DNA from: Congeria kusceri
Taxonomy: Eukaryota > Mollusca > Bivalvia > Myida > Dreissenidae
Direction of reading: 5' to 3'
Assembly: GCA_027627225.1 (NCBI GenBank)
Contig: CM051029.1
Span: forward strand, 15,459,956-15,523,955
Length of the DNA stretch: 64,000 nt
Under the pieces are notes generated by a model. The model was not told the DNA's origin, searched no databases, and worked only from the letters and a program-made list of their open reading frames with translations. Positions within the stretch are counted from its first letter, which is position 1. Each line of letters opens with the position of its first letter. A program made the position numbers and the translations under genes. Below, piece by piece: positions 457-57,263 of the stretch.

Positions 457-562
457 TTATGATAGTAGACTAACAGAGTTCAGAAGTTAAATGTTTTAAC
501 TAAATAACATGTTAGGTTGCAGTGGTGTAACATATATTGTGTCCACTTTGAATCGGGACATT

Positions 563-5024: not shown

Positions 5025-5180
5025 CTTTCTAGTGCCATCTACGAAGCACTGTAGCCAGTATTCCCTGGCCTGCGTGTCCTGGGTGAGATCCACCGTGTCC
5101 GGCTGGTACCTGTCAGGGTCCAACAGTAGTGGGCAGGGCAGTGTGGCCTTCTCCAGTCTGTCCAGCTCCAGCATGTCAAA
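5025..5180 (-). CDS. pank4: pank4 exon 10 (start of DUF89 domain)
   Basis: 156 nt, exactly 52 codons. The acceptor is tttttgttgccag and the donor AGAAAG|GTGAGTATA. It codes for [30 protein letters not shown] and AREYWLQCF, matching FDLLEMDRLER..PDTVDLT..YWLTCF of human PANK4. Its last 33 nt and donor are the first unit of the 43-bp array that fills the next intron. Confidence 0.92.
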
Positions 5181-8100
5181 CTGGCAACAAAAATGGTTTA
5201 GTACAACTATATGTGATTTGGCAATATACAAGAGCTGTCAGAGGACAGCGCGCTCGACTATTCGAAGTATTACAGTTGGTACATATTTTGGATAGTGGAA
5301 CGGGCATAAATTTGTTAAAATACAAAAAAATTTAGTGAAGCCTTGTATAGTTTCTAAATTTTTGGAACAAAAACTTTAACCACACAGTCTATGTAAAAAC
5401 TGGGCTAACTCTGTCAAAATACAAAACAGATTTATGGGTAATGTTGCCCCTGATACTAGAGTTGATGACAAAGGTTAGTGCCAAGTTTCAAGTGAATAAC
5501 TTACGTAGTCTTGAAGTAACAACACTTTTGAATATAAACTTTAACTAGAAAATATATGTGAAAAAGGGGCATTACTCTGTCAAAATACAAAACACAGTTA
5601 TGCGTAATGTTGCCCGTGACACTGGAGTTGATGACAAAAGGTTAGTTCCAAGTTTCAAGTGAATAACTTATGCAGTTTTGAAGTTACCAAACTTTTGAAT
5701 ATAACTTATAACAGAAAATCTATGTGAAAAGGGGGCATAACTCTGTCAAAATACAAAACAGAGTTATGGTTAATGTTGCCCCTGATACTAGAGTTGATGA
5801 CAAAGGTTAGTTCCAAGTTTCAAGTGAATAACTTATGTAGTTTTGAAGTTATCAAACTTTTGAATATAAACTTTAACCAGAAAATCTATGTGAAAAGGGG
5901 GAATAACTCTGTCAAAATACAAAATAGAGTTATGGGTATTGTAACCCCTGATACTATTGTTGATGACAAAAACTAGTTAGAAGTTTCAAGTGAATAACTT
6001 ACGTAGTTTTGAAGTTACCAAACTTTTGAATATAAACTTTAAACAGAAAATATTAGTAAAAAGGGGACTAACTCTGTCAAAATACAAAACAGAGTTATGG
6101 CTATTGTTGACCCTGATACTAAAGTTGATGACAAAGGTTAGTTCCAAGTTTCAAGTGAATAATTTATGTACTTTTGAAGTTACAAAACTTTGGAATATAA
6201 ACTTTAACAGAAAAACTATGTGAAAAAGGGGCATTACTCTGTCAAAATATAAAAGCGTTACGGGGAATTTACACCCTGATACTGGAGTTGATGACAAAGG
6301 TATATTCCAAGTTTCAAGCAAATAGCTTCTGTAGTATTGAAGTTACAAAACTTTTGAATATAAACTTTAACAAAAAAATGTATGTGAAAAAGGGACATAA
6401 CTCTGTCAAAATACAAAACAGAGTTATAGGGAATGTTGCCCTTGATAATAGAGTTGATGACAAAGGTTAGTTCCAAGTTTCAAGTGAATAACTTATGTAC
6501 TTTTAAAGTTACAAAACTTTTGAATATAAACTTTAGCCAGAAAATCTAAGTGACAAAGGGGCATAACTCTGTCAAAATACCAAACAGAGTTATGGGGAAT
6601 GTTGCCCCTGACACTGGAGTTGATGACAAAGATATATTCCAATTTTCAAGTGAATAACTTATGTAAATTTGAAGTTACAAGACTTCTGAAAAAAAAACTA
6701 ACCAAATTCAGATGCGGATGCCGACGGCAGTAGGAAAGCTCACCTATTCTTCAAATAGTCGAGCTAAAAATGTGGCATTCAAAGGAAAGTCATCAGCTGA
6801 TTGGAAAAATCACACCCCTGATATCAAAAACTTGTGAAAATACTATATAAACATTATTTTTAAGGATGAAAATGAATAATTGAAAAATCTTTGGTGTATT
6901 TTTAATATGATAATGGTTATGAAGACCTTGTCGCTTGTTGTGGTGATGTTGTTGATGATGATGATGATGTCGATGATGATGATGGTGGTGGTGATGATTA
7001 TGATGATGGTGTTGTTGGTGGAGTTGATGATGATGATGATGATGAAATAAAGAAGAAGTGTAGTAATGATGACATGAATACAAGGACCTAATACTCAAGT
7101 ATGTTCGAATAATGAACTAGAATATTCAAATGGCATATTAGTTTACATTGCCATTCCTAATTTTTTTCTTATCAACACATCCAAAGTTTTTAGTTTTTAT
7201 TTTAATTGGACAAATACAAAAACTCCTGAAGAAAGCGAACCACATAAACACATTGTTAGCAAACGTATTCAGGTTATAAGGACTTTGATCAGGAAAAAAC
7301 TAGCTAAAAAGTTTGAGCTGCATAGAAATATCTTGGAAAGAGGACAAAAAGATAGAAAACTGTTCTAAGTGTTCTCTGTTTTTGTACAGAAGGTCTCTGG
7401 TTCAAGCCAATGACAAAAAAGAGTGCATCTAGTGTTCTGCCTAACTAAAGATGAGGTAAAAGGAAATCTGAACTTAACACCAAGTAAGAGCCATGTATGA
7501 CATTTTTTCTTTACACTTGAAAGTAGTCCATATTAAGTTTGTCAGTTTTCTGAGCAATGTACCACGAAATTGCAAATGGCAATAATCTGGTACTCTGTTA
7601 GATATGAGTGAAATGTTTTACAATCATCGCCTATAACGCAAATCTATTACACAGTTAGTAGTTTTTGTCCAATTCTCTTGAGAAAGTTTATTTACATATT
7701 TAAACATTATATTTGGCGCGTCGTGAGGAAACCGGTCATTATGCATGTGCGTAAAGTGTCATCCCGGATTAGCCTGTGCGGAGTGAACAGGCTTATCCGG
7801 GATGACACTTTTCGCACATGCATTAAGAGTGGTTTTCTCATGACGTGCCACATGTCTTCACCCAGTCACAAACTTAAAAACTATTTGATATATACACTGT
7901 ATTGTGGAAGCAGTTTGCCATACCTAGATTGTTCTTTGAGATCTTCCTGGTACTTTAAGCTTTATGGTATTTTCTGTTTCAAGGAGGTCCCTTCTAAACA
8001 TAAATCCACTGTAGGTGGAAAGTGTTGTCCCAGATTAGCCTGTATGGACTGCACAGGCTAATCCAGGACGACACTTTACGCACATGCATTAAGACCGGTT

Positions 8101-11100
8101 TTCCCACGAAGCGCCACAATAAATACTAATACATACATACCAGCATAATATCTCTCGTTTATTTTACAGCCGACAACTGGTCAGAAACATTACATGTATG
8201 CCATATTTCAACAAAATAAGATGCATTCTAACAAACATTCCAATTATTATAATGTTCTAACAAAATTATCGTTGTTAAACTACCCAATAAACAACGCAAA
8301 AAGAAGCACTGGTTCTGAGTGGAGCATAGTTAAATTTACAATTGCAAAAATATATGTCAAATCATGTTAGAATCCAAATAATTTTCGCATTATCGTTGTT
8401 AATTGGCCTAAAACAACTCTTTGTCATTCTGAAGTGTGGCTATTAAACAACTCAGGCTAACTCCCTCAGGGTTTAATTCCAACGCATCAGAACTCCAAAT
8501 CGTTGTTAACTGGCCAATAAACAACGATAAATCGAAAATCATTCTTAATTAGTCATGCTGAGGAGTAGACACAGAACAAAATTACCTGGCATTCTATAGT
8601 ATAACAAAACAAAAACGTATATTATATAAAGTTATAAAATTTAATCGTAATAATTTGCACTCTATGCTATCTTCTATACACTTTTGTTAGCTTCTATCGT
8701 TTCAGTTTAGAATACAAAATGTATAGTGAAATAGTACATGGTAGAAGAAATCACAGTAAGTACATGTAACAGTGGACTCTAAGAACATATAGGACAGGAC
8801 AGGCAGCATGTACTTCATATGAATACGCTCGGAATTGTACTGCAACTTATGTGTTAAGGTAGTCTTCAAACTATGCATTTCTTCTTAAGAAAATCTTATT
8901 ATAGAATTTCAAAATTTTAAGCTTTTTCTTAATTTTGGACTAAGATTCATTCAGGTTTACTTCGCTTTAAAGAATAAGCCCTCCAAACTGTTTGAACCCA
9001 CCTAAAATGATAGTACAAAACAAACCTACCTTGCTGCTTAAATCATACATTAAAATTCTACCTCAAGCATTTTGGAAACAAATCTGACTGGTTAACTCCT
9101 TCTAGAACCTAAGGATTTACTGTGCTGTTGAGGAAAATAACTACACACTCACGTTTGAGTTTTGCGTCTGCTGGACGCAGGACGTATTTCAAAATACTAT
9201 TTCCAATATTGTGGACAAATCTGACCAGTTAACTCGAGTGGAACATTACACATACAAATCATCATGAAGTTCAAACCGAATAACCAGACTCAGATTTGCA
9301 TTATGTATGTAACAGATAACAAAACCATTTTGGCTCCATATTTGACCAGTTAACTCGAGTGGAACATTACACATACAAATCATCATGAAGTTCAAACTGA
9401 ATAACCAGACTCAGATTTGCATTATGTATGTAACAGATAACAAAACCATTTTGGCTCCATATTTGACCAGTTAACTCACCATAACCATTCAGCATACTGT
9501 TAAGAAAATAACTGCAAACTCACATTTCAAATTCAATCGACCAGTACTAAAAATGAGGCGGATCCTGGGAAAACCAGGCTTAATGCATGTGCGTAAAGCA
9601 GACTCCTGAAAACCGTTGGTTCAACGGACATGACCGGCAAATTTTGAGTGGGTCCGATATTTATTTCCTAGGAATTGGTCAGACCGTCCGAAAGCTTTTT
9701 AAAAAATCATTCCTATATATTACTGGATAACAAAATACCAAATATCGGAGCAATCGGAACATCGCAAATACCAAATATCGGAGCAACCGGAACATCGCAA
9801 ATCGGCAGTGGAGTACAAATATTTGTTTTCATGATCTTAAATAATTTCCTTATTAGGTCAGATACCAGTATTTCCAATTCCCATAGGGTCCCATTATAAA
9901 ACCGCAAACTTTCCAAGCATTTTTCTAGCATATTCTTTTTTTCAGATTGTGCAAGCCTGGTATCAATTGAAAGATCAATCTGTCCTCTTCCAAAATTTGC
10001 AATAAAAAAAGAATGTCATAATACTTCTAAGATAATGCATCTCACTTGATTGCAGGCACCGTTAGAAAACAGGGTTTAGGCAGTCATATTTCGACAAAAG
10101 CCCCATACCATAGTAAACACACCCTAAAAGTTCACCTTTCAAGTTAGCCTCCAATGAAATGCACCAAAATGACATGCATAGGATATTAGAAATAACCGCA
10201 AAAGGCATGTCTGAGATTCCTAAATGGCTTTTATGCCACAAGAGAAGAGGAACTCTTTAGTAATAGGCAATACTTTTGAATGGACCACGGAGGGATACAC
10301 AATGATTTACTGGTATCTAACCATTATACCAATTGCCGTAAATAAATGCCGTTTGGATTTTCCCGCCTTCATCGCTACTTTTTTTCAATTAATCTAGTGT
10401 TGTGCGACAAAGTATAACCTGACCTGCGCAACATCAAAGGATAAGTTTGGCGTCACCAGCTCATATTGCGCATGCTACCCAAGCCAATGTCTTTTCCCTT
10501 CAGTCGCTATAATTAGCAGCCCAAGTACAAGGTTTTCACATGCTGCCCGTGGACAGGTCTTTCCTACGCAGAAAGCCAGACTCAAGGTCAATATCCGACT
10601 TACATACCGGAAGGCGACACAAATGCCGCAAATTTGAATCACATAAAGAAGATGTCTATCGGATGGTTCTTTCTACCATGTTTGCATGTACTTTTTCTCA
10701 GTTCATCTCCTTAATATTGGTATGAAATTTATAACGTAACACGCACATAAATAAATGTTCCAAGACTGTAAAATATAATTCACATTGTATGGCAGAATTT
10801 GTTTTCGGGTCAAAGAATCGGATATATTTTGTATTATCATTGTTTATCTGTAAATAAAGAACGATTTGTCGTGCTGATGCTAAAGCACTTGTGGTAAATT
10901 CCTTCGCATTGGACCTGTTATTATTTCTTTATTAGCCGAAAGCAACTCGCAATCGAACATAATGTCTTATTCAATCGTTTATTGATATAAGAAAACACCA
11001 GTTGTCCATAAACAAAAAGACATTTCTTTATAAATTAAACAATTAACAGTATATAAATAGTTGGCACATTTTAAAACAAAAAATTAGTAAAAAAGTATCA

Positions 11101-14100
11101 CTAAATAAGAAACTGAATGGCTTTAATGCATGGTATAGTTAGCATATGTTTTTTTCTAGGATACAATAATAAAATGATATACGTTGCATTAATTTTTTTT
11201 ATAGAAAATAATATATTGTGTCGTACAATTAAAAAAACCAATCTGTTAAAAGTCACTATATTCATAACAAAATTGTTTTCTGCCTTGACATGTAATATTT
11301 ATTTTGTTTTTTGTACATGCAGTTGAAATAACATATGTATGCAGAAAGTCCAACAAATGAACGTGTGCGTGCACATGTATGTATTTTAGAACTACATCAT
11401 GAAGTACACATGCTTCTCGTGGACAAGTCTTTCTGTGAACAATACAATCCTCGTGCACGGGTCTTTTTGCACGTGGACCCGCACATGAGGATTGTATTGT
11501 TCTCACAGATCGTTCCGAAAAGTATAGACCCGAATGAAATAAAGAAGTAGGTATGTAAACATGGGTACATGCACTAGTATGGGTCGTGAAAAACATCCTG
11601 CATGTCGTCCATGTGGTGGTTGTTAAAAGTAACTGTAAGTCATAGACCTAAATCTCGATACCTCGTAATTGCTTTCGTGTTTTATAGGTAATATAATGGT
11701 CAACAAAAGATTGAGTAAAATATGCGGCATACGTATAGAAACTTAATAATTGTGTTGTTTTGCGCTACGAAACTTTTATACAAAAGTAATGACTTCAAAG
11801 TTCTTTGCGCTACAAACTTTTTTTTATATAACAGTCAATACGTCCACGCTTTCCATGCGGATGACACGACGTTGTGATTGTCGGCATAATTTTTGCGGGC
11901 TTTTTAGCAAACCATGGGTTTTACATGCGCATACTAAATATCAATAGAATTTGTGTGTATGTCTCGTGAACAGTAAATCTGGACGGGTGTTTCGGATTTC
12001 ATTTTTATTATGTGCCTTGTCATATCGTAATTTGATATTAATTAAAATAATAATGGCAACGGTTGGTTAAGTGGGTTTGCTTTTTATATCGCGAAAATAC
12101 GTTAGTGTATACATGTATACATACTTAGATGAATGATTCGGTCTGGCAAATTTTATTTCGGTCCGGCAACTTTTGACAGGTTTGCACAGGCTAATACAGG
12201 ACGGCACTTTCCACCTTTTATGATATTTTCTTTTTCGAGGAAGTATCTTCTAAACATAAATCCACTGTAGGCGGAAAGTGCCCTCCTGGATTAGCCTTTG
12301 CCGACTGCACAGGCTGATCCAGAACGACACTTTACGCACATGCATTAAGTCCGGTTTACCCACGTCATGCCTCAAATATGCTATTTCCAATACTGGTACT
12401 TTGGACAAATATCTGATAAAAGCTAACTCAGCTAGAACATTCACAATGTCTTTTCAGACTCATGTTTGAGTTCTGGGAGTGCATAATGCAATAAGCATTT
12501 CAATATACTATTTAACAGATACCTTCCAACATTCTGGACACATATCTGACCACTTAACTCTACAAGGACATACAAATCATCACATATTTCAAATGAAAAA
12601 AATGCCGCGACTCACATGTGAGTTCTGTGTCTGAAGGGACGGCTGGGCCAGACCAGAACTGCCGGCAAAGTTCTCCTCCCAGCAGTATTTCTCTGCATCT
12701 GAAATCACACAGACCGACTACACATTGAGGAGATTTGTTGATTTCGGTGTGAGATCGTATTTTATTTCATGAGTGTTCATGGAAAATGATATTTTCACGA
12801 GTGGCGCAGCACGACGGCACGAATAACTTCTGTAGTTCTGAACTTACAAAACTTTTGAATATAAACTTTAACCAGAAAATCTATGTGAAAAAGGGGGATA
12901 ACTCTGTCACATTACAAAACAAAGTTATGGAGAATGATGCCCTTGATACTGGAGTTGATGACAAAGGTATATTCCGAGTTTTAAGTGAATTACTTGAGTA
13001 GTTTTGAAGTTACAAGACTTTTGAATAAATACTTTAACCAAATTCAGACGCGGACGCAGACGCTGACGCTGGGGGTAGTAGGAAAGCTCAAATATTCTTC
13101 GAATAGTGGAGCTAAAAATGTTCAAAAGCCTTTTTCTAACATTACTGCACTCAAATGGTGTTGCTACATAATTAAGGATTATTACAATAATACTAAGTTT
13201 TTTTACAGATTGCAATGATTTGTTGCGTGTAAGTTTACTACCACTTATTTTACAAAGAGAGTACATTTACCCCCATAATTTCTGGTGAGTGTACATTTAC
13301 TCCCAAATTTTTAGAAGTATGCGTCATTTATCCCCAGTACAAAAGCTTATTTGGAGCACTGCATGGCACTGCACCCGGCCCCTTTTTGGTTCCCCCCTGC
13401 TGCCTTTCTGGTCTGGTCAACAATCGAGTGTTGATTATCATTTAAAATTTAATACATTTTTGCTAATTTTCAATCATAATTTGAAGGGAACTTGTTTAAA
13501 AACCTTACTTAGAAGCATTATATTCATTATCAACACATATTTTTGAACACTTCAAAGAAATGGTATGTTTTTCCCCCCTGCTCCTTTTTAGCAGCACCCG
13601 GTACATGTTCTATTCCTTTACCTATGAAAGACAGAAGGGCCTATCAATCTTCTTTACAAATATGCTGATATGACACCTGGCTGTTAAAGGATGATATATA
13701 CATGTAGTTTGAACAGTTAAACTGTCAACAGACTCACCCCGATCATAGATTTAAAGCAAACCTAGTTATGCAAAATACAATTCATATCATATAATTAACA
13801 TGTACATCTTAATAAAAAACTAGAAATATTACTTTTCTATGGAAATTACTTTATGGTTTAAAACAGTGGGTTACAAAATAGATTGTATTGCTGTTGTTGT
13901 GATTTGTAATTAATTAATTTTGATGTGTGCGAGTTATTGTGGTTGTTTTTTCTTTTAAATCTAAATTCTGGAGTATTATATTAAAGCAGCAAATACAACA
14001 AACAACAACCTACTTTTCATGTTTCATATGTTGCAAATAATGTCCCCTTGACAGCGAGAAGGGGCTATCAGCCTTCTCTGCACATATGCTAATGATGCCT

Positions 14101-17100
14101 TCTGGCCCTCAAATGACAAGAAGCTTGAACAATAAACACTTTGGACTTTGGACTTTAAAAAGGGGACTGTACGATTTTAAATGAAAATTATACTGTAAAA
14201 CCACCCATTGATTCGAATGATCTCAATACATTTTTTCAATAATATTATAATAAATGTTGAGAATAAAACTTATGTTCAGACTTGCGTATTTAGAAAGAAA
14301 TTTTAAACTAAAATAATAATTTGGTGCGCAGAAAACTATTATTTAGATGTATATACAGCATCTAGACAATTCAAATCGATTGTTAGTGTTCTTACTTTCT
14401 CATTCAAAGCCGAATGTAGATGTACCTGCATTTTTCAATAAAAAACAGATTTTGTCTACGTTGAAGTTTTTTTATGTTATATAAAGCTGTTTTTTTGTTA
14501 GTGGGTAATGAAAGAGACCTGGTGACTTGATTTTATGATTTCAAACATACCATCTTCCTCAGCCCCTTTTAGGAAGGCCCCTATGGCCCCTAGGTACCCT
14601 TCATGTCGCAGGAACAGGGGCTGAATCTCTCCCTGGAACAAAAGCACCAGAACAACAATACAAATACGAGACTATGATGTAACATGTCGCAGGAACAGGG
14701 GCTGAATCTCTCCCTGGAACAGAAGCACCAGAACAACAATACGAATACGAGACTATGATGTAACATGTCGCAGGAACAGGGGCTGAATCTCTCCCTGGAA
14801 CAAAAGCACCAGAACAACAATACAAATACGAGACTATGATGTAACATGTCGCAGGAACAGGGGCTGAATCTCTCCCTGGAACAAAAGCACCAGAACAACA
14901 ATACAAATACGAGACTATGATGTAACATGTCGCAGGAACAGGGGCTGAATCTCTCCCTGGAACAAAAGCACCAGAACAACAATACAAATACGAGACTATG
15001 ATGTAACATGTCGCAGGAACAGGGGCTGAATCTCTCCCTGGAACAAAAGCACCAGAACAACAATACGAATACGAGACTATGATGTAACATGTCACAGGAA
15101 CAGGGGCTGAATCTCTCCCTGGAACAGAAGCACCAGAACAACAATACAAATACGAGACTATGATGTAACATGTCGCAGGAACAGGAGCTGAATCTCTCCC
15201 TGGAACAAAAGCACCAGAACAACAATACAAATACGAGACTATGATGTAACATGTCGCAGGAACAGGGGCTGAATCTCTCCCTGGAACAAAAGCACCAGAA
15301 CAACAATACGAATACGAGACTATGATGTAACATGTCGCAGGAACAGGGGCTGAATCTCTCCCTGGAACAAAAGCACCAGAACAACGAGACTATGATGTAA
15401 CATGTCGCAGGAACAGGGGCTGAATCTCTCCCTGGAACAAAAGCACCAGAACAACAATACAAATACGAGACTATGATGTAACATGTCGCAGGAACAGGGG
15501 CTGAATCTCTCCCTGGAACAGAAGCACCAGAACAACAATACGAATACGAGACTATGATGTAACATGTCGCAGGAACAGGGGCTGAATCTCTCCCTGGAAC
15601 AAAAGCACCAGAACAACAATACAAATACGAGACTATGATGTAACATGTCGCAGGAACAGGGGCTGAATCTCTCCCTGGAACAAAAGCACCAGAACAACAA
15701 TACAAATACGAGACTATGATGTAACATGTCGCAGGAACAGGGGCTGAATCTCTGCCTGGAACAAAAGCACCAGAACAACAATACGAATACGAGACTATGA
15801 TGTAACATGTCGCAGGAACAGGGGCTGAATCTCTCCCTGGAACAAAAGCACCAGGACAACAATACAAATACGAGACTATGATGTAACATGTCGCAGGAAC
15901 AGGGGCTGAATCTCTCCCTGGAACAGAAGCACCAGAACAACAATACGAATACGAGACTATGATGTAACATGTCGCAGGAACAGGGGCTGAATCTCTCCCT
16001 GGAACAAAAGCACCAGAACAACAATACGAATACGAGACTATGATGTAACATGTCGCAGGAACAGGGGCTGAATCTCTCCCTGGAACAGAAGCACCAGAAC
16101 AACAATACAAATACGAGACTATGATGTAACATGTCGCAGGAACAGGGGCTGAATCTCTCCCTGGAACAAAAGCACCAGGACAACAATACAAATACGAGAC
16201 TATGATGTAACATGTCGCAGGAACAGGGGCTGAATCTCTCCCTGGAACAAAAGCACCAGAACAACAATACGAATACGAGACTATGATGTAACATGTCGCA
16301 GGAACAGGGGCTGAATCTCTCCCTGGAACAAAAGCACCAGAACAACAATACAAATACGAGACTATGATGTAACATGTCGCAGGAACAGGGGCTGAATCTC
16401 TCCCTGGAACAAAAGCACCAGGAAAACAATACAAATACGAGACTATGATGTAACATGTCGCAGGAACAGGGGCTGAATCTCTCCCTGGAACAAAAGCACC
16501 AGAACAACAATACAAATACGAGACTATGATGTAACATGTCGCAGGAACAGGGGCTGAATCTCTCCCTGGAACAAAAGCACCAGGACAACAATACAAATAC
16601 GAGACTATGATGTAACATGTCGCAGGAACAGGGGCTGAATCTCTCCCTGGAACAAAAGCACCAGAACAACGAGACTATGATGTAACCTGTGCTTGGTAGT
16701 TATTGTTTATTTGTGCAATAATAAAACAATAATATATTAATTTGTTAATATTGGAAACATTGTGACATTATTTCTATGTATATTACATTTAATAATTATA
16801 CTTATACAGAATTTTAATTCATGTAGGGTCGATTTGGGTCAATTTAGGTAGATTTGGGTCGATTGGGTTGATTAGGGGGAATCATGCTGTCAGACTGTAT
16901 AGTTTACATGTTTTTATCAGATTTTTTGAGAAAATTAATATTTTACAGATTACCAAAATAAACTACTAGTTCTACCCAAGAAATAGACTGAGCAGTTCCC
17001 TGGCTAAATGGTTTTCAAGACTAGAACTAACTCTTATTAGCTTGTAAAATAACACATCTTTGAAAAATTACAATGTAATTGAACTTCAATAGCAGTGGGA

Positions 17101-23100: not shown

Positions 23101-26100
23101 ACTTTATCATAATTTTCTGTACCTGGACTTTTAACACTAGACCATGACCTTAACTTTGTCATAATTGTCTGTATCTAGATTGTTAACACTAGACCATGAC
23201 CCTAACTTTGTCATAATTGTCTGTTTCTAGATTGTTAACACTAGACCATGACCCTAACTATGTCATAATTGTCTGTATCTAGATTGTTAACACTAGACCA
23301 TGACCCTAACTTTGTCATAATTGTCTGTATCTAGACTGATAACACTAGAACATGACCCTAACTTTGTCATAATTGTCTGTATCTAGATTGTTAACACTAG
23401 ACCATGACCCTAACTTTATCATAATTGTCTGCATCTAGACTGTTAACACTAAACCATGACCCTTACTTTATCATAATTTTCTGTACCTGGACTTTTAACA
23501 CTAGACCATGACCCTAACTTTGTCATAATTGTCTGTATCTAGACTGTTAACACTAGACCATGACCCTAACTTTGTCATAATTGTCTGTATCTAGACTGTT
23601 AACACTAGACCATGACCCTAACTTTGTCATAATTGTCTGTATCTAGACTGTTAACACTAGACCATGACACTAACTTTGTCATAATTGTCTGTATCTAGAC
23701 TGTTAACACTAGACCATGACCCTAACTTTGTCATAATTGTCTGTATCTAGATTGTTAACAATAGACCATGACCCTAACTTTGTCATAATTGTCTGTATCT
23801 AGACTGTTAACACTAGACCATGACACTAACTTTGTCATAATTGTCTGTATCTAGATTGTTAACACTAGACCATGACCCTAACTTTGTCATAATTGTCTGT
23901 ATCAAGACTGTTAACACTAGACCATGACCCTAACTTTGTCATAATTGTCTGTATCTAGACTGTTAACACTAGACCATGACCCTAACTTTGTCATAATTTT
24001 CTGTATCTAGACTGTTAATACTAGACCATGACCCTAACTTTGTCACAATTTTCTGTATCTAGACTGTTAACACTAGACCATGACCCTAACTTTATCATAA
24101 TTTTCTGTACCTAGACTTTTAACACTAGACCATGACCTAACTTTGTCATAATTGTATGTATCTAGACTGTTAACACTAGACCATGACCCTAACTTTCTCA
24201 TAATTGTCTGTATCTAGATTGTTAACACTAGACCATGACCCTAACTTTATCATAATTTTCTGTACCTGGACTTTTAACACTAGACCATGACCTTAACTTT
24301 GTCATAATTGTCTGTATCTAGACTGTTAACACTAGACCATGACCCTGACTTTGTAATAATTGTCTGTATCTAGATTGTTAACACTAGACCATGACCTTAA
24401 CTTTGTTATAATTGTCTGTATCTAGACTGTTAACACTAGACCATGACCCTGACTTTGTAATAATTGTCTGTATCTAGATTGTTAACACTAGACCATGACC
24501 CTAACTTTGTCATAATTGTCTGTATCTAGATTGTTAACACTAGACCATGACCCTAACTTTGTCATAATTGTCTGTATCTAGATTGTTAACATTAGACCAT
24601 GACCCTAACTTTGTCATAATTGTCTGTATCTAGACTGTTATCACTAGACCATGACCCTAACTTTGTCATAATTGTCTGTATCTAGATTGTTAACACTAGA
24701 CCATGACCCTAACTTTGTCATAATTGTCTGTATCTAGACTGTTAACACTAGACCATGACCCTAACTTTGTCATAATTGTCTGTATCTAGATTGTTAACAT
24801 TAGACCATGACCCTAACTTTGTCATAATTGTCTGTATCTAGACTGTTATCACTAGACCATGACCCTAACTTTGTCATAATTGTCTGTATCTAGACTGTTA
24901 ACACTAGACCATGACCCTAACTTTGTCATAATTGTCTGTATCTAGACTGTTAACACTAGACCATGACCCTAACTTTGTCATAACTGTCTGTATCTAGACT
25001 GTTAACACTAGACCATGACCCTAACTTTGTCATAATTGTCTGTATCTAGACTGTTAACACTAGACCATGACCCTAACTTTGTCATAATTGTCTGTATCTA
25101 GATTGTTAACATTAGACCATGACCCTAACTTTGTCATAATTGTCTGTATCTAGACTGTTATCACTAAACCATGACCCTAACTTTGTCATAACTGTCTGTA
25201 TCTAGACTGTTAACACTAGACCATGACCCTAACTTTGTCATAACTGTCTGTATCTAGATTGTTAACACTAGACCATGACCCTAACTTTGTCATAATTGTC
25301 TGTATCTAGACTGTTATCACTAAACCATGACCCTAACTTTGTCATAATTGTCTGTATCTAGACTGTTATCACTAAACCATGACCCTAACTTTTGTCATTA
25401 TATTCTGTATCTAGACTGTTAACGCCAGACCATGGCCTAATTTTTGGCGTACCTTGATTGTTCTGTGAGCTCTTTCTGGGCGAGCGTGCTGCCTTCCCGA
25501 AGCTGCTGGCGATGACATCTCCTGGAAGACCGATCAGTGAGTACGCTCCGCCGTAGATGTCCTTGACCAGCATGTCGACCTCGCGGTGGTCTCCCTTCTC
25601 TGCCAGCAGCAGAAGGTCATCAAATGTCTGGAAACAGTTGAAGTTAAACCTCTAACATTAATTTAGCCAAAAAAAGAAACTGGCAGTGTATCAAAACTAT
25701 CAATGTTCCGGGAAGGGGATTATGATATATCATAAACACTAGTTGAATATTAAAACGCAATGTTTTTATAACACAGATGTTCATTTTATCTTTTTTTAGA
25801 CATGTATTGATAAATGTTTTTTTACATAATGGTTGAAATTTAATCCACAAACTAAAAAGATACGACAAATTATAAAGCATCAGGTTTGTTTTGGGGCCGA
25901 CTATATAAGGCCATAATGACAGCATAATTATCAAACATATGTCAACAGTTGTAAAGTGATGTTACAGTTGAAATCTTGTGCAACTGATGGGTTGTCAAAT
26001 AATTTAGAACATGGTGTAGATAGATGTTACAGAAAAATCTTGAATTTAAGGTCATGGTGACAAAAAGATGGATGTTACAGATTAACCTTGAAATCTGAGT

Positions 26101-29100
26101 TCACACCAACAGCACTATAACACATGATACTGGTAATCCATGGGGGTTAAGAAATCTTGAAAAAAGTGGTACATTGATATTACAGTTAAACCTAAATATC
26201 TGTGAATTACTGCACTATAACACATGATACTGGTAATCCATGGGGGTTAAATAATCGTGAAACAAGTGGTACATTGATGTTACAGTTAAACCTAAATATC
26301 TGTGAATGACAGCACTATAACACATGATAATAAATCTATGAGAGGTTAAAATAATCTCGAACAAGTTATAGTTAAAACTTGAAAGCTGACATCATCCTGA
26401 CTGCACAATAAAGTAAGTATGAGAATCCATGGCGGGTTTTAATAATCAAGTAAAAGTTGAAGATACATGTAGGCGTTAGAGTTAAAGCTTAATCAAGTAG
26501 AAGTTGAAGATACGTGTAGGCGTTAGAGTTAAAGCTTAATTATCTGAGATCGCCAAGACTGCATTATAGCACATGAGAATCCATTTGGTGGTTCAATTAA
26601 TCTAGAACAAGTTATATGAAAAACAGGAGCTGTCAGATGGCAGAGCACTTGACTATTCAAAGTATTTTAGTTTCTGCATTTGTTTGAAAGTGGTCAGATA
26701 ATGAAACAATTTCAATACAAATACCTAGAAAGATAGACTTGTTTATAAAAAGTGAGTAAAATAAGAGATATACTAGAATGGTGTCCTTGATAAATCAAAA
26801 ACAAGAGGCACACGAGTGCCTGTATCGCTCCACTGGTTTATTAAGTAAGCAGTGTCAGAAAGCAAGGACCCTGATAGGCACACGAGTGCCTGTATCGCTC
26901 CACTGGTTTATTAAGTAAGCAGTGTCAGAAGCAAGGACCCTGATATGGTAATTCAGAAAAACAAGAGGCACACGAGTGCCTGTATCGCTCCACTGGTTTA
27001 TTAAGTAAGCATTGTCAGAAGCAAGGACCCTGATAGGCACACGAGTGCCTGTATCGCTCCACTGGTTTATTAAGTAGGCAGTGTCAGAAGCAAGGACCCT
27101 GATAGGCACACGAGTGTCTGTATCGCTCCGCTGGTTTATTAAGTAAGCAGTGTCAGAAGCAAGGACCCTGATATGGTAATTCAGTAAGCAGTGTCAGAAG
27201 CAAGGACCCTGATATGGTAATTCAGTAAGCAGTGTCAGAAGCAAGGACCCTGATATGGTAATTCAGAAAAAAAGGCCCAGCCCTCTGGCAGCCATAAATC
27301 TAAATAATTTTAAAAGTATTTTGGTAGAGAACCGCCAAAGAAACATTTCTGTACAATTATTTTGAAATACAACCAGTGGTTTCTGACAAAAAAGATTTTC
27401 AGTTCTTTCAATATAGTCATATAAAGTAAAATGGCCCAGCCTTTGGCCAGTGGAGCAAACAAGTTTTGAAGTTCTAAGAATTTTGAAAAAAAATAACCTT
27501 ATATCTATGTGAAAAGGAGGCATAACTCTGTCAAAATACAAAACAGAGTTATGGGGAATGTTACACCTGATGCTGGAGTTGAAGACAAAGGTATATTCCA
27601 AGTTTCAAGTAAATAAATTACATGTATATACTTTTAAAGCTATAGACTTCTTAATAAACACTTTAACCTGAAAAATCTATGTAAAAAGAAGGCATAACTC
27701 TGTGAAAAAAAAAAGAGTTATGAAAAATGTATTTATTACCTGATGTTGGAGCTGATGACAAATATATATTCCAAGATTGAAGTGAATAACTATGTAGTTT
27801 TGAAGTTATAAGACTTTTGAATTTACACTTTAACCTGAAAATCTATGTGAAAAAGGGTCATAACTCTGTCAAAATACAGAGTTATACTGATTGTTACACC
27901 TGATGTTGGAGTTGATGACAAACATATATTCCAAGGTCCAAGTGAATAACTTATGTAATTTTAAATTATAAGACTCTTGTTATGTAATTTTAAATTGTAA
28001 GACTCTTGAATAAAAACTCGAATCAACTTCAGAACGCAGACTCTATCGCTGGGGTGAATAGGAAAGATCACCTATTAATCCAATAGCCAAGCTTACAAGA
28101 GCTGTCCCAGGACAGCGCGCTCAACTATTCATACCGCTTTGTCAGAATATGGGCCTTGGCCAGTGACCTTACATAATGACCCTGAAGACATCTGTAAAAT
28201 TTTATTTGAATATCTGTAGTAGATATAGAGATATGAAGTTGTTAAGTGCAAACTTTAACCTTAATTTGAAGTATAAAAAGGGCATAATTCTGTGAAATTG
28301 CAGGTCAAGTTATGGGACTTGGTCAGTGACCTAACATAATGACCCCCAAGGCTTGTGTGAAGTTTCAATTGAATATCTCTAGTAGTTACAGAGATATGTA
28401 CTTATAGCATGCAAACATTCACCAGAGCATTACGGTGACGCCGACGCTGATGAACAGGTGAGTACAATATGTCAAACTATTCGGTGAACGGTCGAGCTAA
28501 AAACACGAATCATTCATAGTGCTTTATACAATTGCAGGTAATATTTGAAAAATTCCAACCCTGGCCTTAGTGAGTAGGGACCCCAGAAGGTTTCCCCCCG
28601 ATGGCTGTACCAGTTTCCCCCCGATGGCTGTACCAGTTTCCTCCCGATGGCTGTACCAGTTTCCCCCGATGGCTGTACCACCTATCAAAATCATTCATAG
28701 TATCATATAATATTGGATGTAACATACGATATATTCCATCCTTGGCCTTTGTAAGTAGGAAGCCCAGGCCCCAGAATGTTCCTCCCCCTGTGGCTGTACC
28801 CCCTATCAAAATCATTCATAGTATCATATAATATTGGATGTAACATACGATATATTCCAACCTTGGCCTTTGTAAGTAGGAAGCCCAGGCCCAGAAGGTT
28901 CCTCCCCCTGTGGCTGTACCCCCTATCAAAATCATTCATAGTATCATATAATATTGGATGTAACATACGATATATTCCAACCTTGGCCTTTGTAAGTAGG
29001 GAGCCCAGGCCCCAGAATGTTCCTCCCCCTGTGGCTGTACCCCCTATCAAAATCATTCACAGAATCATATAATATTGGATGTAACATACGATATATTCCA

Positions 29101-32100
29101 ACCTTGGCCTTTGTAAGTAGGGAGCCCAGGCCCAAGAATGTTCCTCCCCCTGTGGCTGTACCCCCTATCAAAATCATTCATAGTATCATATAATATTGGA
29201 TGTAACATACGATATATTCCATCCTTGGCCTTTGTAAGTAGGGAGCCCAGGCCCCAGAAGGTTCCTCCCCCTGTGGCTGTACCCCCTATCAAAATCATTC
29301 ACAGTATCATATAATATTGGATGTAACATACGATATATTCCAACCTTGGCCTTTGTAAGCAGGGAGCCCAGGCCCCAGAATGTTCCTCCCCCTGTGGCTG
29401 TACCACCTATCAAAATCATTCATAGTATCATATAATATTGGATGTAACATACGACATATTCCAACCTTGGCCTTTGTAAGTAGGGAGCCCAGGCCCCAGA
29501 AGGTTCCTCCCCCTGTGGCTGTACCCCCTATCAAAATCATTCATAGTATCATATAATATTGGATGTAACATACGATATATTCCAACCTTGGCCTTTGTAA
29601 GTAGGGAGCCCAGGCCCCAGAATGTTCCTCCCCCTGTGGCTGTACCCCCTATCAAAATCATTCATAGTATCATATAATATTGGATGTAACATACGATATA
29701 TTCCATCCTTGGCCTTTGTAAGTAGGGAGCCCAGGCCCCAGAATGTTACTCCCCCTGGTGGCTGTACCCCCTATCAAAATCATTCACAGTATCAAATAAT
29801 ATTGGATGTAATATTTGATATATTTCAACCTTGGCCTTTGTAAGTAGGGAGCCCAGGCCCCAGAATGTTCCTCCCCCAGTGGCTGTACCCCCGATCCTGT
29901 CAAACTGGTTCTCGGACTCCACCTGCAATGTACAGCAAAAGAACATTTTTTCAAAAAGCTATATGAAAAAATTGATCACAGAACATATTTCCCTTGGGAA
30001 CATGTTCTTATTTATGTTTCCCTTGGGAACATGTTCTTAATATCTTCTGACTGTTGGATTGATGTGTTATTTTGTAGAAATGGTGTTTATTTCTTAACTG
30101 ATGGCTAATGTTTACTTTTTGGAATATTGCATCAGACACAAAATTAATCTTACATATGACCAATATGAAACATCAGGCATACTTTAATCAGGCTGACCCC
30201 TGAGCCAATGTTAACGAGCAGATAAGGGAAGATGTTGTGGTCGACCCCATGGAACTTGTACTCGGGGGAGCCGTGGCGCTGGTAGATGAAGACCTCGTCT
30301 GGAATGTTCTTCAGTAGGAAGTTACATCCTTTGATTAGACATGTGATTTCATCCTCTCGATCAACCCTGAAAAACACTTAAACTGTTTAAACTATTATAT
30401 CTGTGAGCTGAAAACTGTCTTTCAATATCCAGGGGTGTGGAAATATCCAAATTTTTAACTTGTTAACATGGACAAGTTCATTGCAAAAATCTACTTGTCC
30501 GCAAACTACAGTCACTTGTCCAGTTTTTATTCAGGCTTCCTGATATATTTTTTTATTAAATTATAAATAAAACACAATTTGTCACTCAAATGTATAAGGG
30601 TATAATAAAACGATAATTAGCTTCCAAATTAAATATCATTTTTACACGCTGAAATTGTCCATGGACAAGTAGAGAGGAAAAAATCACTTGTCCGACAGTA
30701 AAATTACCCGTGTCAGACAAGGCGGACATAGGATTTCCACACCCCTGCAATATCCATACGGAATGTGGCGTCAGTTTTTATCAATTTTGTTGGTTTATTA
30801 CTTTTACAATATTGGTTGTGTTCCATTTTTTGTACTTTCAAAAAATCAAGTTGGCAGATCCGAGAAACTACAAATCAACAAAGTATGGCCTTACTTAACA
30901 GAGAGTTTCTTTCTGATATACCCTGTGTACTTGTAACAAGCAGATTTTCTACATTAGTATATCTACGACCATCTGAGAGCTTAGGCCCGGTATTAGGCCT
31001 GGTGAAGAAACTGTTTTTTTCCAAACTTTGTTTGTTTGTTTGTTTGGATTTTTCACCGTTTTTAACAGTATTTCAGTCATATCACGGCGGTCAGTTAACC
31101 TACTCACACTTTGCCTGGGCAAGCTTAGCCGATCTAAGCGGTTTACCAGTACTAAGTGCACATACTTATGCCAGTAACTGACAACTGCCCTACTTGAATC
31201 AGAGGTAGGGGGAGAATGGCCGTAGAAATAAATTCATAACCAATCAACACACAAGCTATGTGGCCGGGCTGGGGCTTGAGCTCATGATCCCCGGATTGAC
31301 AGTCCAGTGCTCTACCAACTAAGCTAGCCGGCCCCGACTGATTTTTTTCCAGCCTACTTATTATGTTTTGCCTTACTTTACTGACAGCTTCTTATTGTGT
31401 AGGGACATTGATTCGAAAATGCAACTTATAATCGGGTTGGAATCAGTTGTTGCTTCCGATGCGACATTACGGATTATCATCGGTTTCAAATGTTATTTGT
31501 ATTACCCATATTTCTGTTCATTTAACGTAGAGAATGCACTAAATGCGTTTCTTTTGTGCATCAATAATAAATGTTAACTAATAAACAATAAGTTCAACAA
31601 GGCAGTCCAATAGACAGCTATATCCCCCGCCATGATCCTTCATTAGATTTCAAAGGTGACTTTGAAGTATCACACTGACCTTAATCTGGCACAGTTGGAC
31701 CAGATATGAAAGTACAGTTTCAGAAATTTAGATATGGAGCTGACACGATAATGGAGGCTCAAACATTTGACCTTCTAAGTGTGGCCTTGACCTTGAGGTG
31801 GCAAGACTGCTCCATGGCTTCTGCACATCGCCTCAATGTGATAAACAAGTTTTATGAAAATCCTTCAAAGGGCATAGGAGATATGGAGCAGACACAAAAA
31901 ATGGAGGCTCAAACATTTGACCTTCAAGTGTGACCTTGACCTGGAGGTGGCGTGACTGCCTCATGCCTTCTGCACATTGCCTCAATGTGATAAACATTTG
32001 AGCCAAGTTTCATGAAAATCCTTCAAAGGGTATCGGGGATATGGAGCGGACACGAAAAACGGACACGAACATGGAGGCTCAAAAATTTAACCTTCAAGTG

Positions 32101-35100
32101 TGACCTTGACCTTGAGCTGGCGTGAAAGGCCCATGCCTTCTGCACAGCATCTCAATGACCTAAACATTTGAGCTAAGTTTCATGAATATCCTTCAAAATG
32201 CATAGGAGATGTGGAGCCCACACGAAATGGCGGCTCGAATATTTGACCTTGAGCCGGCGTGACTGAGTCATGCCTTCTGCACATCATCTCAATGACCTAA
32301 ACATTTTAGCCAAGTTTCATGAAAATCCTTCAAAGGGTATAGGAGATATGGAGCGAACATGAAAATGTTACGGACAGACGGACGGACAGACGGACGGACA
32401 GACGGACGAAGGGCATTCTTATAACCCCCCTCCAGCTTCGCGGCAGGGGATTAATAACAGCAGTTTTATATGCTAAACAGCTGCTCATCAATTGCGAACA
32501 TATAAAACAAGTAGGCCTGTAGATCAAGTAAATTTAAAGTCTAAACTGTAAAATAATTCAAAATGATTTGGTCTAAATTATGGAACTCGCATCTCACTCC
32601 ATATTTTGCGCTTCAAATCCAATGATTGATTTTATAACTGTGACATCGAAAATCGACATCTAAAAACTGTTACATGCCGCTAATTGATTTTTTCCAATCG
32701 TCGTCCCATCGCGACTGATAAGCCCTGTGTACTTGTTACAAGTATATTAGTATATCTACAACTATCTCAGAGCTTAGGCCAGTTTTTTTCCAACCTACAT
32801 ACACTGATTTGTTTTGCCAGTTGTGTTTTTTCACCTTTGAGGGAAAGGTGGCAGGGCCCTTCAGATGAGGAATTTTACGAAAAAAGGGCTTTTTTTTTTT
32901 TAAGCGGTAGTACATTCTACTTTCTTATAAAACATTAATCAATTGCTTAACCGCTTAGATCGGCTACCGAGTATGCTTGCCCAGAAAAAGTGTGAGTAGG
33001 TTAACTGACCGCCGTGATATGACTGAAATACTGTAAAATACAGGGACAAATCCAAACAAACAAACATTTATTATGTTTGGCCTTACTTCACTGACAGCTT
33101 CTTGCTGATAAGCATAGTGCACTTCTATCCCCTGCCTACCTGTGCAACTATTACAACTGTGAGCTGAATTTCTCAGTTAATATTCAAAGAGAAAATGGGC
33201 ATCAATATTAATGACCTTTATCAATATTTTGTTTATTATTTTAACAATACCGGTATTGGTTGTGTTCCAAGTTTGTTTTTTATTTTTTCAAAGGTTGGCG
33301 GATCCCAGAAACTAAGAATCCCCAAGCCTTACTTCACAGAGAGTTTCTTGCTGATAAGCTCTGTGTACTTGTATCCACCGCCGCCCGTAACCTTGAGGCA
33401 CTTCTCTCGTAGGGAACTGTTCACGCCCCCTATGTGATGCTGAATGAAGTCCAGGCAACTCTCGATGAACTTCGTCTCAAACTTCACGAAGTGCAGGCGA
33501 ACTACGGTCTCGTTGGTGTCAGACACTTGGTAGATACTGTCCGCATCCTGCCATATAAGCAGAGAAACACTAGACAGGTCATTTATAAAAGTATACTGTA
33601 CAAAAATTACATTCTGTAGTTCAAATTAAGGTCTATTTTCACATTTTGTGTGAATTCTTTTTCCAAAATGGCAGCTACTTTTGCAATATCGAAAACAAAA
33701 TGGCTATTTAATGTGTTATTATTTCTTTGTGCCAAGTATAAATGTAAATCTAGAAACCTAGAAGTCTTAGAATATGCGTAACGTATTGAATAGCTTTTGT
33801 AAATATGTTCAAACTGCTGTTATACTGATAGCATGAATAAATAACCATCGTGATAACCACAGTTTTCACAGGTAATGACAAAAACTTTGAGTGACAATTC
33901 TAGTTGCTTCACTAGCAACAAGAATTCAGTTCAGGTAGGTATGGCTTACTCAATCTGTAAACACATTACACAAGTGTGTTAAGGGTCCTGCATTATCCTA
34001 GGCCTGCATTATCCTGCATTATCCTAGGCCTGCATTATCCTGCATTATCCTAGGCCTGCATTATCCTGCATTATCCTAGGCCTGCATTATCCTGCATTAT
34101 CCTAGGCCTGCATTATCCTACATTATCCTAGGCCTGCATTATCCTGCTTTATCCTAGGCCTGCATTATCCTGCATTATCCTAGGCCTGCATTATCCCAGG
34201 CCTGCATTATCCTGCATTATCCCAGGCCTGCATTATCCTGCATTATCCCAGGCCTGCATTATCCAGCATTATCCCAGGCCTGCATTATCCCAGGCCTGCA
34301 TTATCCTGCATTCACCAACCCATTCTTACGCTTTGACAGTTTTTCTTTAGGGCCAATCTGGGGCCGAAATTCGGCCCCATTCCTCTGCTTAAAACATATG
34401 TGGCCCGTCGTGAGAAAACCGGCCTTAATGCAAGTGCGCAACGTGTCGTCCCGGATTAGCCTGTGCAGTCCACACAGGCTAATCCGGGATGGCACTTTCC
34501 GCTTTTATGGTCTGTTTCAAGGAAGTCTTTTCTACCCATAAATCCACTTTAGACAGAAAGTGCCGTCCTGGATCAGCCTGTGCGGACTGCACAGGCTGAT
34601 CCGGGACGACACTTAACGCACATGCATTTAGACCGGTTTTCACACGACGCGCCACATATATATTTTTCCCTTATATTTACCTTAAAATTCCCCTCAAAAT
34701 ATAAGCTTTATTTGAAAAGAAAAATGGACCAAAATCAGACAAAACTGACTAAGAATTTTTGTAAACAATACCAGAAATTTTCATAAAACCAAGTTGGTGC
34801 ATAATCTAAGTTATAATTTGTGACAAAAAAATTCATTAACGTTTTATAACTAAGTAGAATATAAACATGTAATAATGTTTTTCCAAAAACAGAATTCCCC
34901 TTATGGCGTAAAATTCCCCATCTGAAGAGCCCCGACACCTTTATCTCAAAGCTCATAAAAAACAATGTTAGACCGTAGAAAACATCCGTGTGTGTTTGCA
35001 AATACACTTGCTGGTACCAATGTTGCTTATGTTGAAAACAAATTGTTCTAACTAAACAATGCTATAATGAGCCCCTTAGCTCTTTATTATATGAATGACG

Positions 35101-48270: not shown

Positions 48271-48306
<36 letters not shown>

Positions 48307-49030: not shown

Positions 49031-49062
<32 letters not shown>

Positions 49063-57069: not shown

Positions 57070-57263
57070 ATGGCACTGCACAGTCGAGGTGTTTTATTTT
57101 CAATCGCTGTTCTGTTTAACGTGCTACGCGTGGCATTTGGCCGGACGGACTGCGCGCAAATACAATACCAGGATTTCAAAGATATCAGCTCCAGCCATGG
57201 TAAGCTGTACTGCGGGTCCGGGTATCACGAGTGCGGTAACGATGGAAACGCGTGTTGTAACAA
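57070..57263 (+). CDS. Gene B exon 1 (signal peptide and Cys domain)
   Basis: ATG in context ttgaaATGg; 194 nt ending TGTTGTAACAA|GTAGGTC, phase 2. Confidence 0.75.

What the first reader, a model, noticed from the sequence alone, without database searches (positions are those of the whole stretch)
5025..33547. pank4 introns are filled by tandem arrays seeded on exon-intron borders
Four arrays clearly contain the splice site and coding edge of the neighbouring exon in gene sense: 43 bp (exon 10 donor), 81 bp (exon 8 acceptor), 121 bp (exon 5 donor) and 70/42 bp (exon 7 acceptor). A 52-bp array starts at the exon 6 donor, and degenerate copies exist for the exon 3 and exon 9 donors. Each array has its own sequence and period, so the process happened repeatedly in one gene. 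Ordinary minisatellites should not favour exon edges. Possible causes are local slippage or rolling duplication started at splice sites (for example via R-loops or reverse-transcribed splicing intermediates), or selection for decoy splice sites.
Basis: partly seen in the sequence, partly recalled or inferred. Interest (0 to 1): 0.88.

Follow-up and report, generated by a model that had tools for sequence, protein, structure and literature searches.

The report
Exon-edge tandem repeats fill clam introns
In one gene of a clam-like mollusc, short pieces of DNA that straddle exon edges have been copied up to about a hundred times into the neighbouring introns; a sample of unrelated genes in the same genome also shows it, and it resembles the 'mirage' repeats reported in lancelets, so it looks like ordinary local DNA stuttering that is tolerated at exon edges rather than a mechanism that seeks splice sites.

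Summary
The gene is a complete 16-exon pank4 (779 aa, all introns GT-AG) in a 1.55-Gb bivalve assembly. In the window, arrays of 43 bp (exon 10 donor), 81 bp (exon 8 acceptor) and 121 bp (exon 5 donor) contain coding edge plus splice site. Degenerate copies exist for exons 3, 6, 7 and 9. A near-identical second copy 0.8 Mb away has different array lengths. This matches 'mirage' minisatellites, reported in lancelet genes. In pank4, borders are duplicated more often than matched intron points (6/30 against 4.6%, P=0.002). In blindly chosen CCT chaperonin genes they are not (3/106 against 5.3%), and pooled there is no excess (P=0.25). Most likely: microhomology-primed tandem duplication plus block-wise expansion, tolerated when a unit straddles one border because the exon-proximal splice site survives. 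Selection for decoy splice sites is not supported: at the three arrays tested, every decoy gives a premature stop. No RNA evidence was available.

The parts
5025..5180 (-). pank4 exon 10; donor AGAAAG|gtgagt at its low end
   Evidence: aligned with 9 mollusc PANK4 proteins
562..5057 (-). 43-bp array, 104.7 copies, each with the exon 10 donor border (about 25-41 nt of exon + GT + 18 nt intron)
   Evidence: 103 copies besides the exon copy, GT kept in 103 of 103
12616..12698 (-). pank4 exon 9
9038..9177 (-). degenerate copy of the exon 9 donor border (26 nt exon + intron)
   Evidence: score 80 against shuffle maximum 45
9222..9477 (-). 121-bp x2.1 array, degenerate copies of the region at the exon 9 donor (matched stretch 9268-9427)
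   Evidence: score 98 against shuffle maximum 51
14551..14632 (-). pank4 exon 8
14602..16670 (-). 81-bp array, 25.7 copies, 50 nt intron + AG + first 31 nt of exon 8; the copy nearest the exon is the working acceptor (inferred)
18931..19121 (-). pank4 exon 7
19181..20593 (-). 70-bp array x20.2, degenerate homologue of the exon 7 acceptor border (-75..+16)
   Evidence: score 68 against shuffle maximum 41
20594..20791 (-). further degenerate copy of the exon 7 acceptor border between the two arrays (matched stretch 20715-20781)
   Evidence: score 61 against shuffle maximum 39
20792..21240 (-). 42-bp array x10.7, degenerate homologue of the exon 7 acceptor border
   Evidence: score 76 against shuffle maximum 43
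21413..21459 (-). single degenerate copy of the exon 6 donor border (37 nt exon + GT + 8 nt) at the distal end of the 52-bp array
   Evidence: score 54 against shuffle maximum 41
21469..25434 (-). 52-bp array, 76 copies, ending 18 bp from the exon 6 donor; does not contain the splice site
25453..25627 (-). pank4 exon 6
28590..29896 (-). 121-bp array, 10.2 copies plus degenerate distal copies; each unit has 67 nt of exon 5 + donor + 54 nt intron
29830..29922 (-). pank4 exon 5
30183..30366 (-). pank4 exon 4 (no border copy found; intron 4 is 260 bp)
30777..30935 (-). degenerate copy of the exon 3 donor border (41 nt exon + 116 nt intron), 74% identical
   Evidence: (E 1.2e-25)
33080..33148 (-). 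degenerate copy of the exon 3 donor border
33333..33547 (-). pank4 exon 3
36547..36620 (-). pank4 exon 2 (no border copy found)
38664..38769 (-). pank4 exon 1 (no border copy found)

Best explanation
These are 'mirage'-type minisatellites, made by local tandem duplication at DNA level. (1) A replication or repair slip primed by a few matching bases duplicates a short segment in the transcribed region (inferred; supported by a single-unit copy of one array site). (2) A duplication inside an exon is removed by selection. One inside an intron, or one that straddles a single exon-intron border, leaves a complete exon with an adjacent working splice site, so it is nearly neutral and stays; the exon-proximal copy remains the site used (inferred from the uninterrupted protein). 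(3) The duplicate then expands and shrinks in blocks by unequal exchange or slippage (length differences between two gene copies are shown; the process is inferred), and the units homogenise. (4) Older arrays decay into the degenerate copies seen at exons 3, 6, 7 and 9. No special targeting of splice sites and no function is needed. The number in pank4 is at the high end of a genome-wide process, helped by introns with little non-array sequence.
For: Contiguous exon+intron units, head to tail, sense only, in the intron next to the parent exon. Second copy of the gene (14 of 2340 coding differences) differs in array length: 43 bp 104.7 against 59.7, 81 bp 25.7 against 9.0, 70 bp 20.2 against 2.3, 52 bp 76.2 against 38.2; unchanged for 121, 31 and 39 bp. 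A 24-copy 44-bp interior array in intron 13 is a single unit in the other copy, with AAAT at both ends (read by eye). Exon-proximal unit of the exon 5 array escapes homogenisation (7.8% from the array against 2.7% within it). Intron 6 (6331 bp) has only 200 bp outside arrays and border-like copies. Border-spanning duplications also occur in unrelated CCT genes, where the unit-placement null expects 2.96 border-spanning arrays and 2 of 23 are seen (45 exons). Pooled borders 9/136 against 5.0% of intron points, P=0.25. Unit sequences fold about as shuffles do (|z|<1.5 for six units).
Against: In pank4 itself borders exceed expectation: 6 of 25 arrays against 1.48 expected under the unit-placement null (P=0.0019), 6 of 13 against 1.12 for arrays of about 10 copies or more (P=0.00025), and 3 of 9 against 0.39 in the half not used to find the pattern (P=0.0041). 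pank4 borders also exceed CCT borders (6/30 against 3/106, P=0.0038). The null weakens if ancestral introns were shorter (all 25 arrays: P=0.042 at half, 0.37 at a quarter of the residual length), but their lengths are unknown. That the exon-proximal site is the one spliced is not shown; no RNA data.
Confidence: 0.72

Rival explanations
1. Border-directed duplication: something about splice sites or exon edges in transcription (R-loops, nucleosome edges, splicing-linked damage, GC-rich exon ends) makes duplications start there, in some genes more than in others.
For: Whole pank4: 6/30 borders against 4.6% of matched intron points, P=0.0023; unseen half 3/11 against 2.5%, P=0.0023; high-copy arrays 6 of 13 against 1.12 expected, P=0.00025. 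In the pank4 part of the window all five arrays over 1.2 kb (a sixth, assigned to a dispersed family, left out) lie within 60 bp of an exon border.
Against: CCT genes show no excess (3/106 against 5.3%); pooled P=0.25. pank4 was picked because of its border arrays. In the first half the fair tests give only P=0.08.
Confidence: 0.15
2. Selection for decoy or back-up splice sites: arrays are kept because extra donors or acceptors regulate or safeguard splicing.
For: GT is intact in 103 of 103 exon 10 decoys and AG in 23 of 23 exon 8 decoys. The exon 15 array is 39 bp (13 codons) and the two units next to the exon read on in the exon frame.
Against: 8 of 43 sites of the 43-bp unit, GT included, show no variation, so GT retention is unremarkable. 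3 of 9 exon 5 decoys lost GT. Only 1 of 103 exon 10 decoys matches the donor consensus as well as the true donor. All 101 + 10 + 24 decoys tested at three arrays give premature stops. Lengths vary widely between two gene copies.
Confidence: 0.05
3. RNA-mediated origin: reverse-transcribed pre-mRNA or splicing intermediates copied back.
For: Units are in gene sense.
Against: The clear arrays are tandem, next to their parent exon, contiguous across the splice site (not spliced, not lariat-ended). A 44-bp interior array without any exon border differs between the two gene copies, one unit against 24, in place.
Confidence: 0.02
4. Assembly artefact: array copy numbers or the second gene copy are errors of assembly.
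For: The second copy is colinear over about 100 kb (chained blocks 92.8-99.4% identical, one 79.7%), so it may be a retained haplotype; a CCT locus also appears twice 1.15 Mb apart.
Against: Units differ from each other (mean 13.3% in the 43-bp, 2.7% in the 121-bp, 1.8% in the 81-bp array), border arrays recur in both gene copies, and old degenerate border copies are not what assembly errors would give.
Confidence: 0.05

Closest known systems
'Mirage' minisatellites of amphioxus (Adh3, globins BflGb6/BflGb9, TnC, PGBD5); PMC3087553 and PMC3902484, passages read; the naming paper, NAR 2002, is not held
   Same: Minisatellite-like tandem duplications spanning exon-intron borders, at donor or acceptor side, units of tens to about 160 bp, concerted evolution with the boundary unit excluded, length differing between haplotypes, many units with splice signals
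   Different: A mollusc, not a cephalochordate. In one gene 6 of 30 borders carry arrays with exon edge and splice site, and four more carry degenerate copies; up to 105 copies against 3-6 units in the BflGb6 example. No RT-PCR here
Human internal tandem repeats at exon-intron boundaries in segmental duplications (PMC2812944, passages read)
   Same: Minisatellites at exon-intron boundaries that change gene structure
   Different: There on average 30 bp x4, seen through exon changes and possible intron gain; here arrays are intronic and the coding sequence aligns with relatives
Intron gain by tandem duplication of AG/GT proto-splice sites (Rogers; described in PMC3087553 passages)
   Same: Tandem duplication that includes splice signals
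   Different: No new intron seen here: the 16 exons join into one protein that aligns with other molluscs

Membership tests
mirage minisatellites (amphioxus) | Tandem repeat unit spans an exon-intron border | tested here: met
   exons 5, 8, 10; exons 11, 12, 15
mirage minisatellites (amphioxus) | Authentic exon and its splice site remain intact beside the array | tested here: met
   16 exons, 779 aa, all introns GT-AG; first 453 aa aligned with 9 mollusc proteins; exons 11-16 matched to Mya PANK4
mirage minisatellites (amphioxus) | Concerted evolution with the cluster boundary excluded | tested here: inconclusive
   exon copy to array against within array: seen at exon 5 (7.8% against 2.7%); not at exon 8 (1.1% against 1.8%) or exon 10 (11.4% against 13.3%)
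mirage minisatellites (amphioxus) | Length polymorphism between haplotypes | tested here: inconclusive
   lengths differ between two near-identical copies 0.8 Mb apart in one assembly; whether these are alleles or paralogues is not settled
mirage minisatellites (amphioxus) | No aberrant mRNA from the duplicated splice sites | not testable with these tools
   no RNA data; only premature stops predicted
mirage minisatellites (amphioxus) | Somatic instability | not testable with these tools
   reported for Adh3 in PMC3087553; needs reads from several tissues
intron gain by tandem duplication | A new intron position arises from the duplication | tested here: inconclusive
   the introns join conserved protein and no extra exon is needed, so none is seen; but intron positions were not compared with those of relatives

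The most novel reading that the evidence does not exclude
In this bivalve a subset of genes undergoes border-directed tandem duplication: exon edges are hot spots where new minisatellites are repeatedly seeded, so intron length in such genes is built mainly from copies of their own splice borders.
Probability: 0.15. Interest if true: 0.8.

Novelty: new member of a known kind. Interest (0 to 1): 0.5.

Why it matters
Mirage repeats have, in the papers seen, been described for lancelet genes, with the mechanism called unclear. A mollusc genome with many of them of different ages, two gene copies with different lengths and even one array site seen as a single unit and as 24 units makes the origin testable. 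It is a route by which introns grow to kilobases from little unique sequence, it litters genes with over a hundred splice-site copies that the cell must ignore, and it can confuse gene prediction. The matched test shows that an apparent preference for exon edges can largely vanish once array growth is collapsed and unselected genes are used.

Tried and rejected
Block-placement null (P 2.8e-06 for all 20 arrays, 1.1e-07 for the five largest, at distance 0) rejected as misleading: it treats grown arrays as placed objects. The unit-placement null and matched intron points replace it. Sensitive scoring gave the same picture in the first half (non-dispersed points, T60: 7/17 against 25%, P=0.11; T80: 6/17 against 14.6%, P=0.028; T45 and T50: no excess). 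Excluding intron blocks that derive from borders raised significance (P 0.004-0.04 at T55-T80; P=0.32 at T50) but is circular and not relied on. One search printed a dispersed-repeat score of 120 for every border because exons were left in the database; those rows are ignored, and mask exons.

Idea that GT is selectively kept in decoys: dropped. Idea that unit hairpins seed arrays: no support. Species identification by the LINE protein: no name; the named animal hits are clams. The fragment list was only partly followed. Rows dropped: the 49 TRF rows were merged by hand to 20 arrays in window 1-38663; four of these were set aside by eye as dispersed families (16 left), and periods under 10 and one 12-bp microsatellite-like row were dropped. 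In the second half 9 arrays were kept after merging the rows. The 33-bp array is listed by TRF in pieces and as 11.5 units of 99 bp, so x35 is 3 x 11.5.

Control caveats: CCT edges come from Pfam matches with computed splice sites, not from annotation, so a few may be gene ends or wrong. Of the 62 matches, 53 were fetched; the other nine are four at a duplicate locus, three on one small contig and two that look intronless. The CCT flanks are short (about 0.5-10 kb). The pank4 test used the top alignment in the whole intron, the CCT test the top two (intron points) or three (borders) in the stretch, so the pooled figure mixes slightly different tests. Two short CCT cases (C15, C2) seen by TRF and by eye fall below the score cut-off and are not among the 3; with them it is 5 of 106, still under the loose interior rate of 8.7%. 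A first version at Pfam edges gave 3/105.

Literature: all 10 searches used; none listed a mollusc case that I recognised from titles and abstract starts, but the library lacks most subscription papers. Passages of PMC9210306 (zebra mussel genome) and PMC4039745 (C. elegans intronic minisatellites) were also read; the passages shown do not describe border-spanning arrays.


Full report
WHAT THE GENE IS. Ten exons on the minus strand of the window give a 453-aa protein with the Pfam Fumble domain (E 2.5e-137). It is 81% identical to Mya arenaria PANK4 and 78% to Mactra antiquata. The window lies at C6:15459956-15523955 of a 1.549-Gb assembly. Fetching the sequence to the left completed the gene: 16 exons, 779 aa, all introns GT-AG, no internal stop. 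The exon 10 donor was in doubt because a GT lies earlier in the exon, but relatives continue ...YWLQCFTDSIDK|QEEQ, so the claimed donor is right. The organism is a bivalve by its nearest named proteins; no call names the species.

CHECK OF THE ARRAYS. TRF finds the stated periods. Self-comparison shows that the 43-, 81- and 121-bp arrays include the real splice site and 25-67 nt of coding edge. The copy next to the exon is part of the exon. In a control, each of 19 borders was aligned to its own intron, to the others and to both strands. Own-intron sense scores were 91 (e3 donor), 205 (e5 donor), 69 (e6 donor, intron side only), 40 (e7 acceptor), 182 (e8 acceptor), 36 (e9 donor, intron side only), 162 (e10 donor) and 36 (e4 acceptor, intron side only); the rest were 16-26. 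Antisense maxima were 22-30, except 59 at the e2 donor, apparently a dispersed element. Other-intron sense maxima were 22-30, except 42 (e2 donor), 58 (e5 acceptor, which sees the e5 array) and 44 (e6 donor). With gentler gap costs and 300 shuffles each, border-crossing copies are also real for exons 3, 6, 7 and 9 (three further candidate stretches tested there for exon 3, at 31370, 32715 and in intron 2, did not exceed their shuffles). Four borders of other genes in the window had no copy above background.

AN INDEPENDENT HALF. Three of the 11 borders from the exon 11 acceptor onward carry arrays with exon edge and splice site: exon 11 donor, 31 bp x82 (C6:15456115-15458662); exon 12 donor, 33 bp x about 35 (C6:15454550-15455709); exon 15 acceptor, 39 bp x11 (C6:15448120-15448554). 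At exon 11 only about 10-15 nt of exon are included. The 39-bp unit is 13 codons, and the two copies next to exon 15 read on in the exon frame, unlike the arrays tested; at least two units farther out carry extra bases that would break the frame.

A SECOND COPY. A colinear copy of the gene lies 0.8 Mb away (C6:16263905-16303756; chained blocks 92.8-99.4% identical, one 79.7%), with 14 of 2340 coding differences and the same splice-site dinucleotides. Intron 6 is 6331 bp here and 2647 there; intron 7 4298 and 2961; intron 9 7435 and 3678; intron 10 6221 and 3780; introns 1, 4 and 11 are equal. Array copies: 43 bp 104.7/59.7; 81 bp 25.7/9.0; 70 bp 20.2/2.3; 52 bp 76.2/38.2; 42 bp 10.7/5.5; 121 bp 10.2/10.2; 31 bp 82.2/82.2; 39 bp 11/11. 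In intron 13 a 44-bp array of 24 copies is a single unit in the other copy, with AAAT at both unit ends. This shows growth from one unit to many (or loss back to one) and suggests, by inference, microhomology-primed slippage. Exon 10 ends GCACTAG... here and GCACCAG... there; the second variant also occurs in array units, so exchange between array and exon is possible but rests on one silent site. Whether the two copies are alleles kept by the assembly or paralogues is open.

ARE BORDERS FAVOURED? Treating each grown array as a block gives P near 1e-6, but that is not a fair null: a duplication that straddles one border leaves a complete exon and is tolerated, so the chance of a unit spanning a border is about 2u/(intron+u) in the intron before growth. 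With arrays collapsed, 16 arrays of the first half give 1.09 expected and 3 observed (P=0.084); 9 of the second half 0.39 and 3 (P=0.0041); together 1.48 and 6 of 25 (P=0.0019); 13 arrays of about 10 copies or more 1.12 and 6 (P=0.00025). If ancestral introns were half or a quarter of today's residual length, the P for all 25 is 0.042 and 0.37. Matched intron points with the same alignment test (non-dispersed) give, at the strict cut-off, 3/19 against 5.4% (first half, P=0.081), 3/11 against 2.5% (second half, P=0.0023) and 6/30 against 4.6% (whole, P=0.0023); at the loosest cut-off the whole gene is 8/30 against 12.2%, P=0.024.

GENOME CONTROL. CCT chaperonin genes were chosen without looking (PF00118, 62 matches). 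Of these, 53 exons were fetched. Clear border-spanning duplications: C7:5633383 acceptor (43 bp x16.7), C16:15583397 acceptor (about 137-bp unit, two copies), C5:73088866 acceptor (about 70-bp unit, two copies). Two more short ones lie at C15:22678106 (41 bp x2.6) and C2:46935641 (33 bp x2.1). By a closely similar alignment test 3 of 106 borders score (all acceptors) against 127 of 1458 non-dispersed intron points at the loose cut-off and 77 of 1458 at the strict one: no excess, if anything fewer (P(less)=0.015 and 0.18). The unit-placement null on the first 45 exons expects 2.96 and sees 2 of 23 arrays. Pooled with pank4: 9/136 against 5.0%, P=0.25; loose 11/136 against 10.0%, P=0.81. pank4 borders still exceed CCT borders (6/30 against 3/106, P=0.0038), as does its unseen half (3/11 against 3/106, P=0.011). 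Since pank4 was chosen for this feature, I read it as the rich tail of a genome-wide process and leave border-directed duplication as a live minority view. Only one gene family could be sampled: the other family searches did not complete.

HOW IT WORKS. Shown: tandem, sense, contiguous units at the parental border; length change between two copies; a decay series from near-identical (81 bp) to degenerate (exons 3, 9); intron 6 with only 200 of 6331 bp outside arrays and border-like copies. Inferred: slippage at microhomology; unequal exchange in blocks; use of the exon-proximal splice site. Use of any decoy would end translation early in 101 of 101, 10 of 10 and 24 of 24 cases at exons 10, 5 and 8. 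The exon 10 decoys are weaker than the true donor (mean 7.7 against 9 of 9 consensus positions), but the exon 5 decoys are slightly stronger than theirs (5.7 against 5), so there is no consistent sign of selection. The donor consensus used for scoring is recalled, from no call.

WHAT IS KNOWN. Tandem repeats spanning exon-intron borders in amphioxus are called 'mirages'. I read passages of PMC3087553 (globins; it cites Adh3 and other loci, says the mechanism is unclear, and reports concerted evolution excluding cluster boundaries) and of PMC3902484 (PGBD5; [quoted passage not shown] PMC2812944 (passages) describes human minisatellites at exon-intron boundaries. Searches for mollusc cases listed none that I recognised. 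The finding is thus a new member, in a mollusc and at unusual density, of a known kind.

Noticed in passing
G000:C6:16263905-16303756 (within L010-L014): A near-identical second copy of the whole pank4 gene lies 0.8 Mb from the first on the same contig; a CCT locus also appears twice 1.15 Mb apart on C1. Retained haplotypes or recent large duplications.
   Followed up: partly
window 7853-7950 and 21352-21449: A 98-bp block at about 96% identity, beginning with an exon 6 donor-like sequence, is present in introns 6 and 9; in intron 9 it sits between pieces that look like a dispersed palindromic element.
   Followed up: partly
window 39409-42617, + strand: Non-LTR retrotransposon-like open frame (RVT_1, E 1e-36), 73% identical to an unnamed metagenome protein; a further frame 42324-42617 follows it.
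   Followed up: no
window 48096-49253: Very long imperfect trinucleotide array (TAG-type, 386 units by TRF).
   Followed up: no
window 61166-61350, - strand: Last exon of a gene with WD40 similarity (its CDC20/Fizzy match is below that model's cut-off); a 22/43-bp array (60985-61153) begins just beyond its stop codon.
   Followed up: partly
window 57070-57264 and 58364-58502, + strand: Two exons of what looks like a small cysteine-rich membrane protein gene; no Pfam match for the joined translation.
   Followed up: no
window 17400-17580 and 31050-31340: Dispersed elements with a tRNA-like end, probably SINEs; not searched with the tRNA tool.
   Followed up: no
window 5349-6690, 12840-13040, 27503-28008: A dispersed repeat family of about 160-166 bp occurs in three pank4 introns, in two of them as tandem arrays.
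   Followed up: no
G000:C6:15452256-15453308 (intron 13): 44-bp array of 24 copies that is a single unit in the second gene copy: a one-unit and many-unit pair for array growth.
   Followed up: yes
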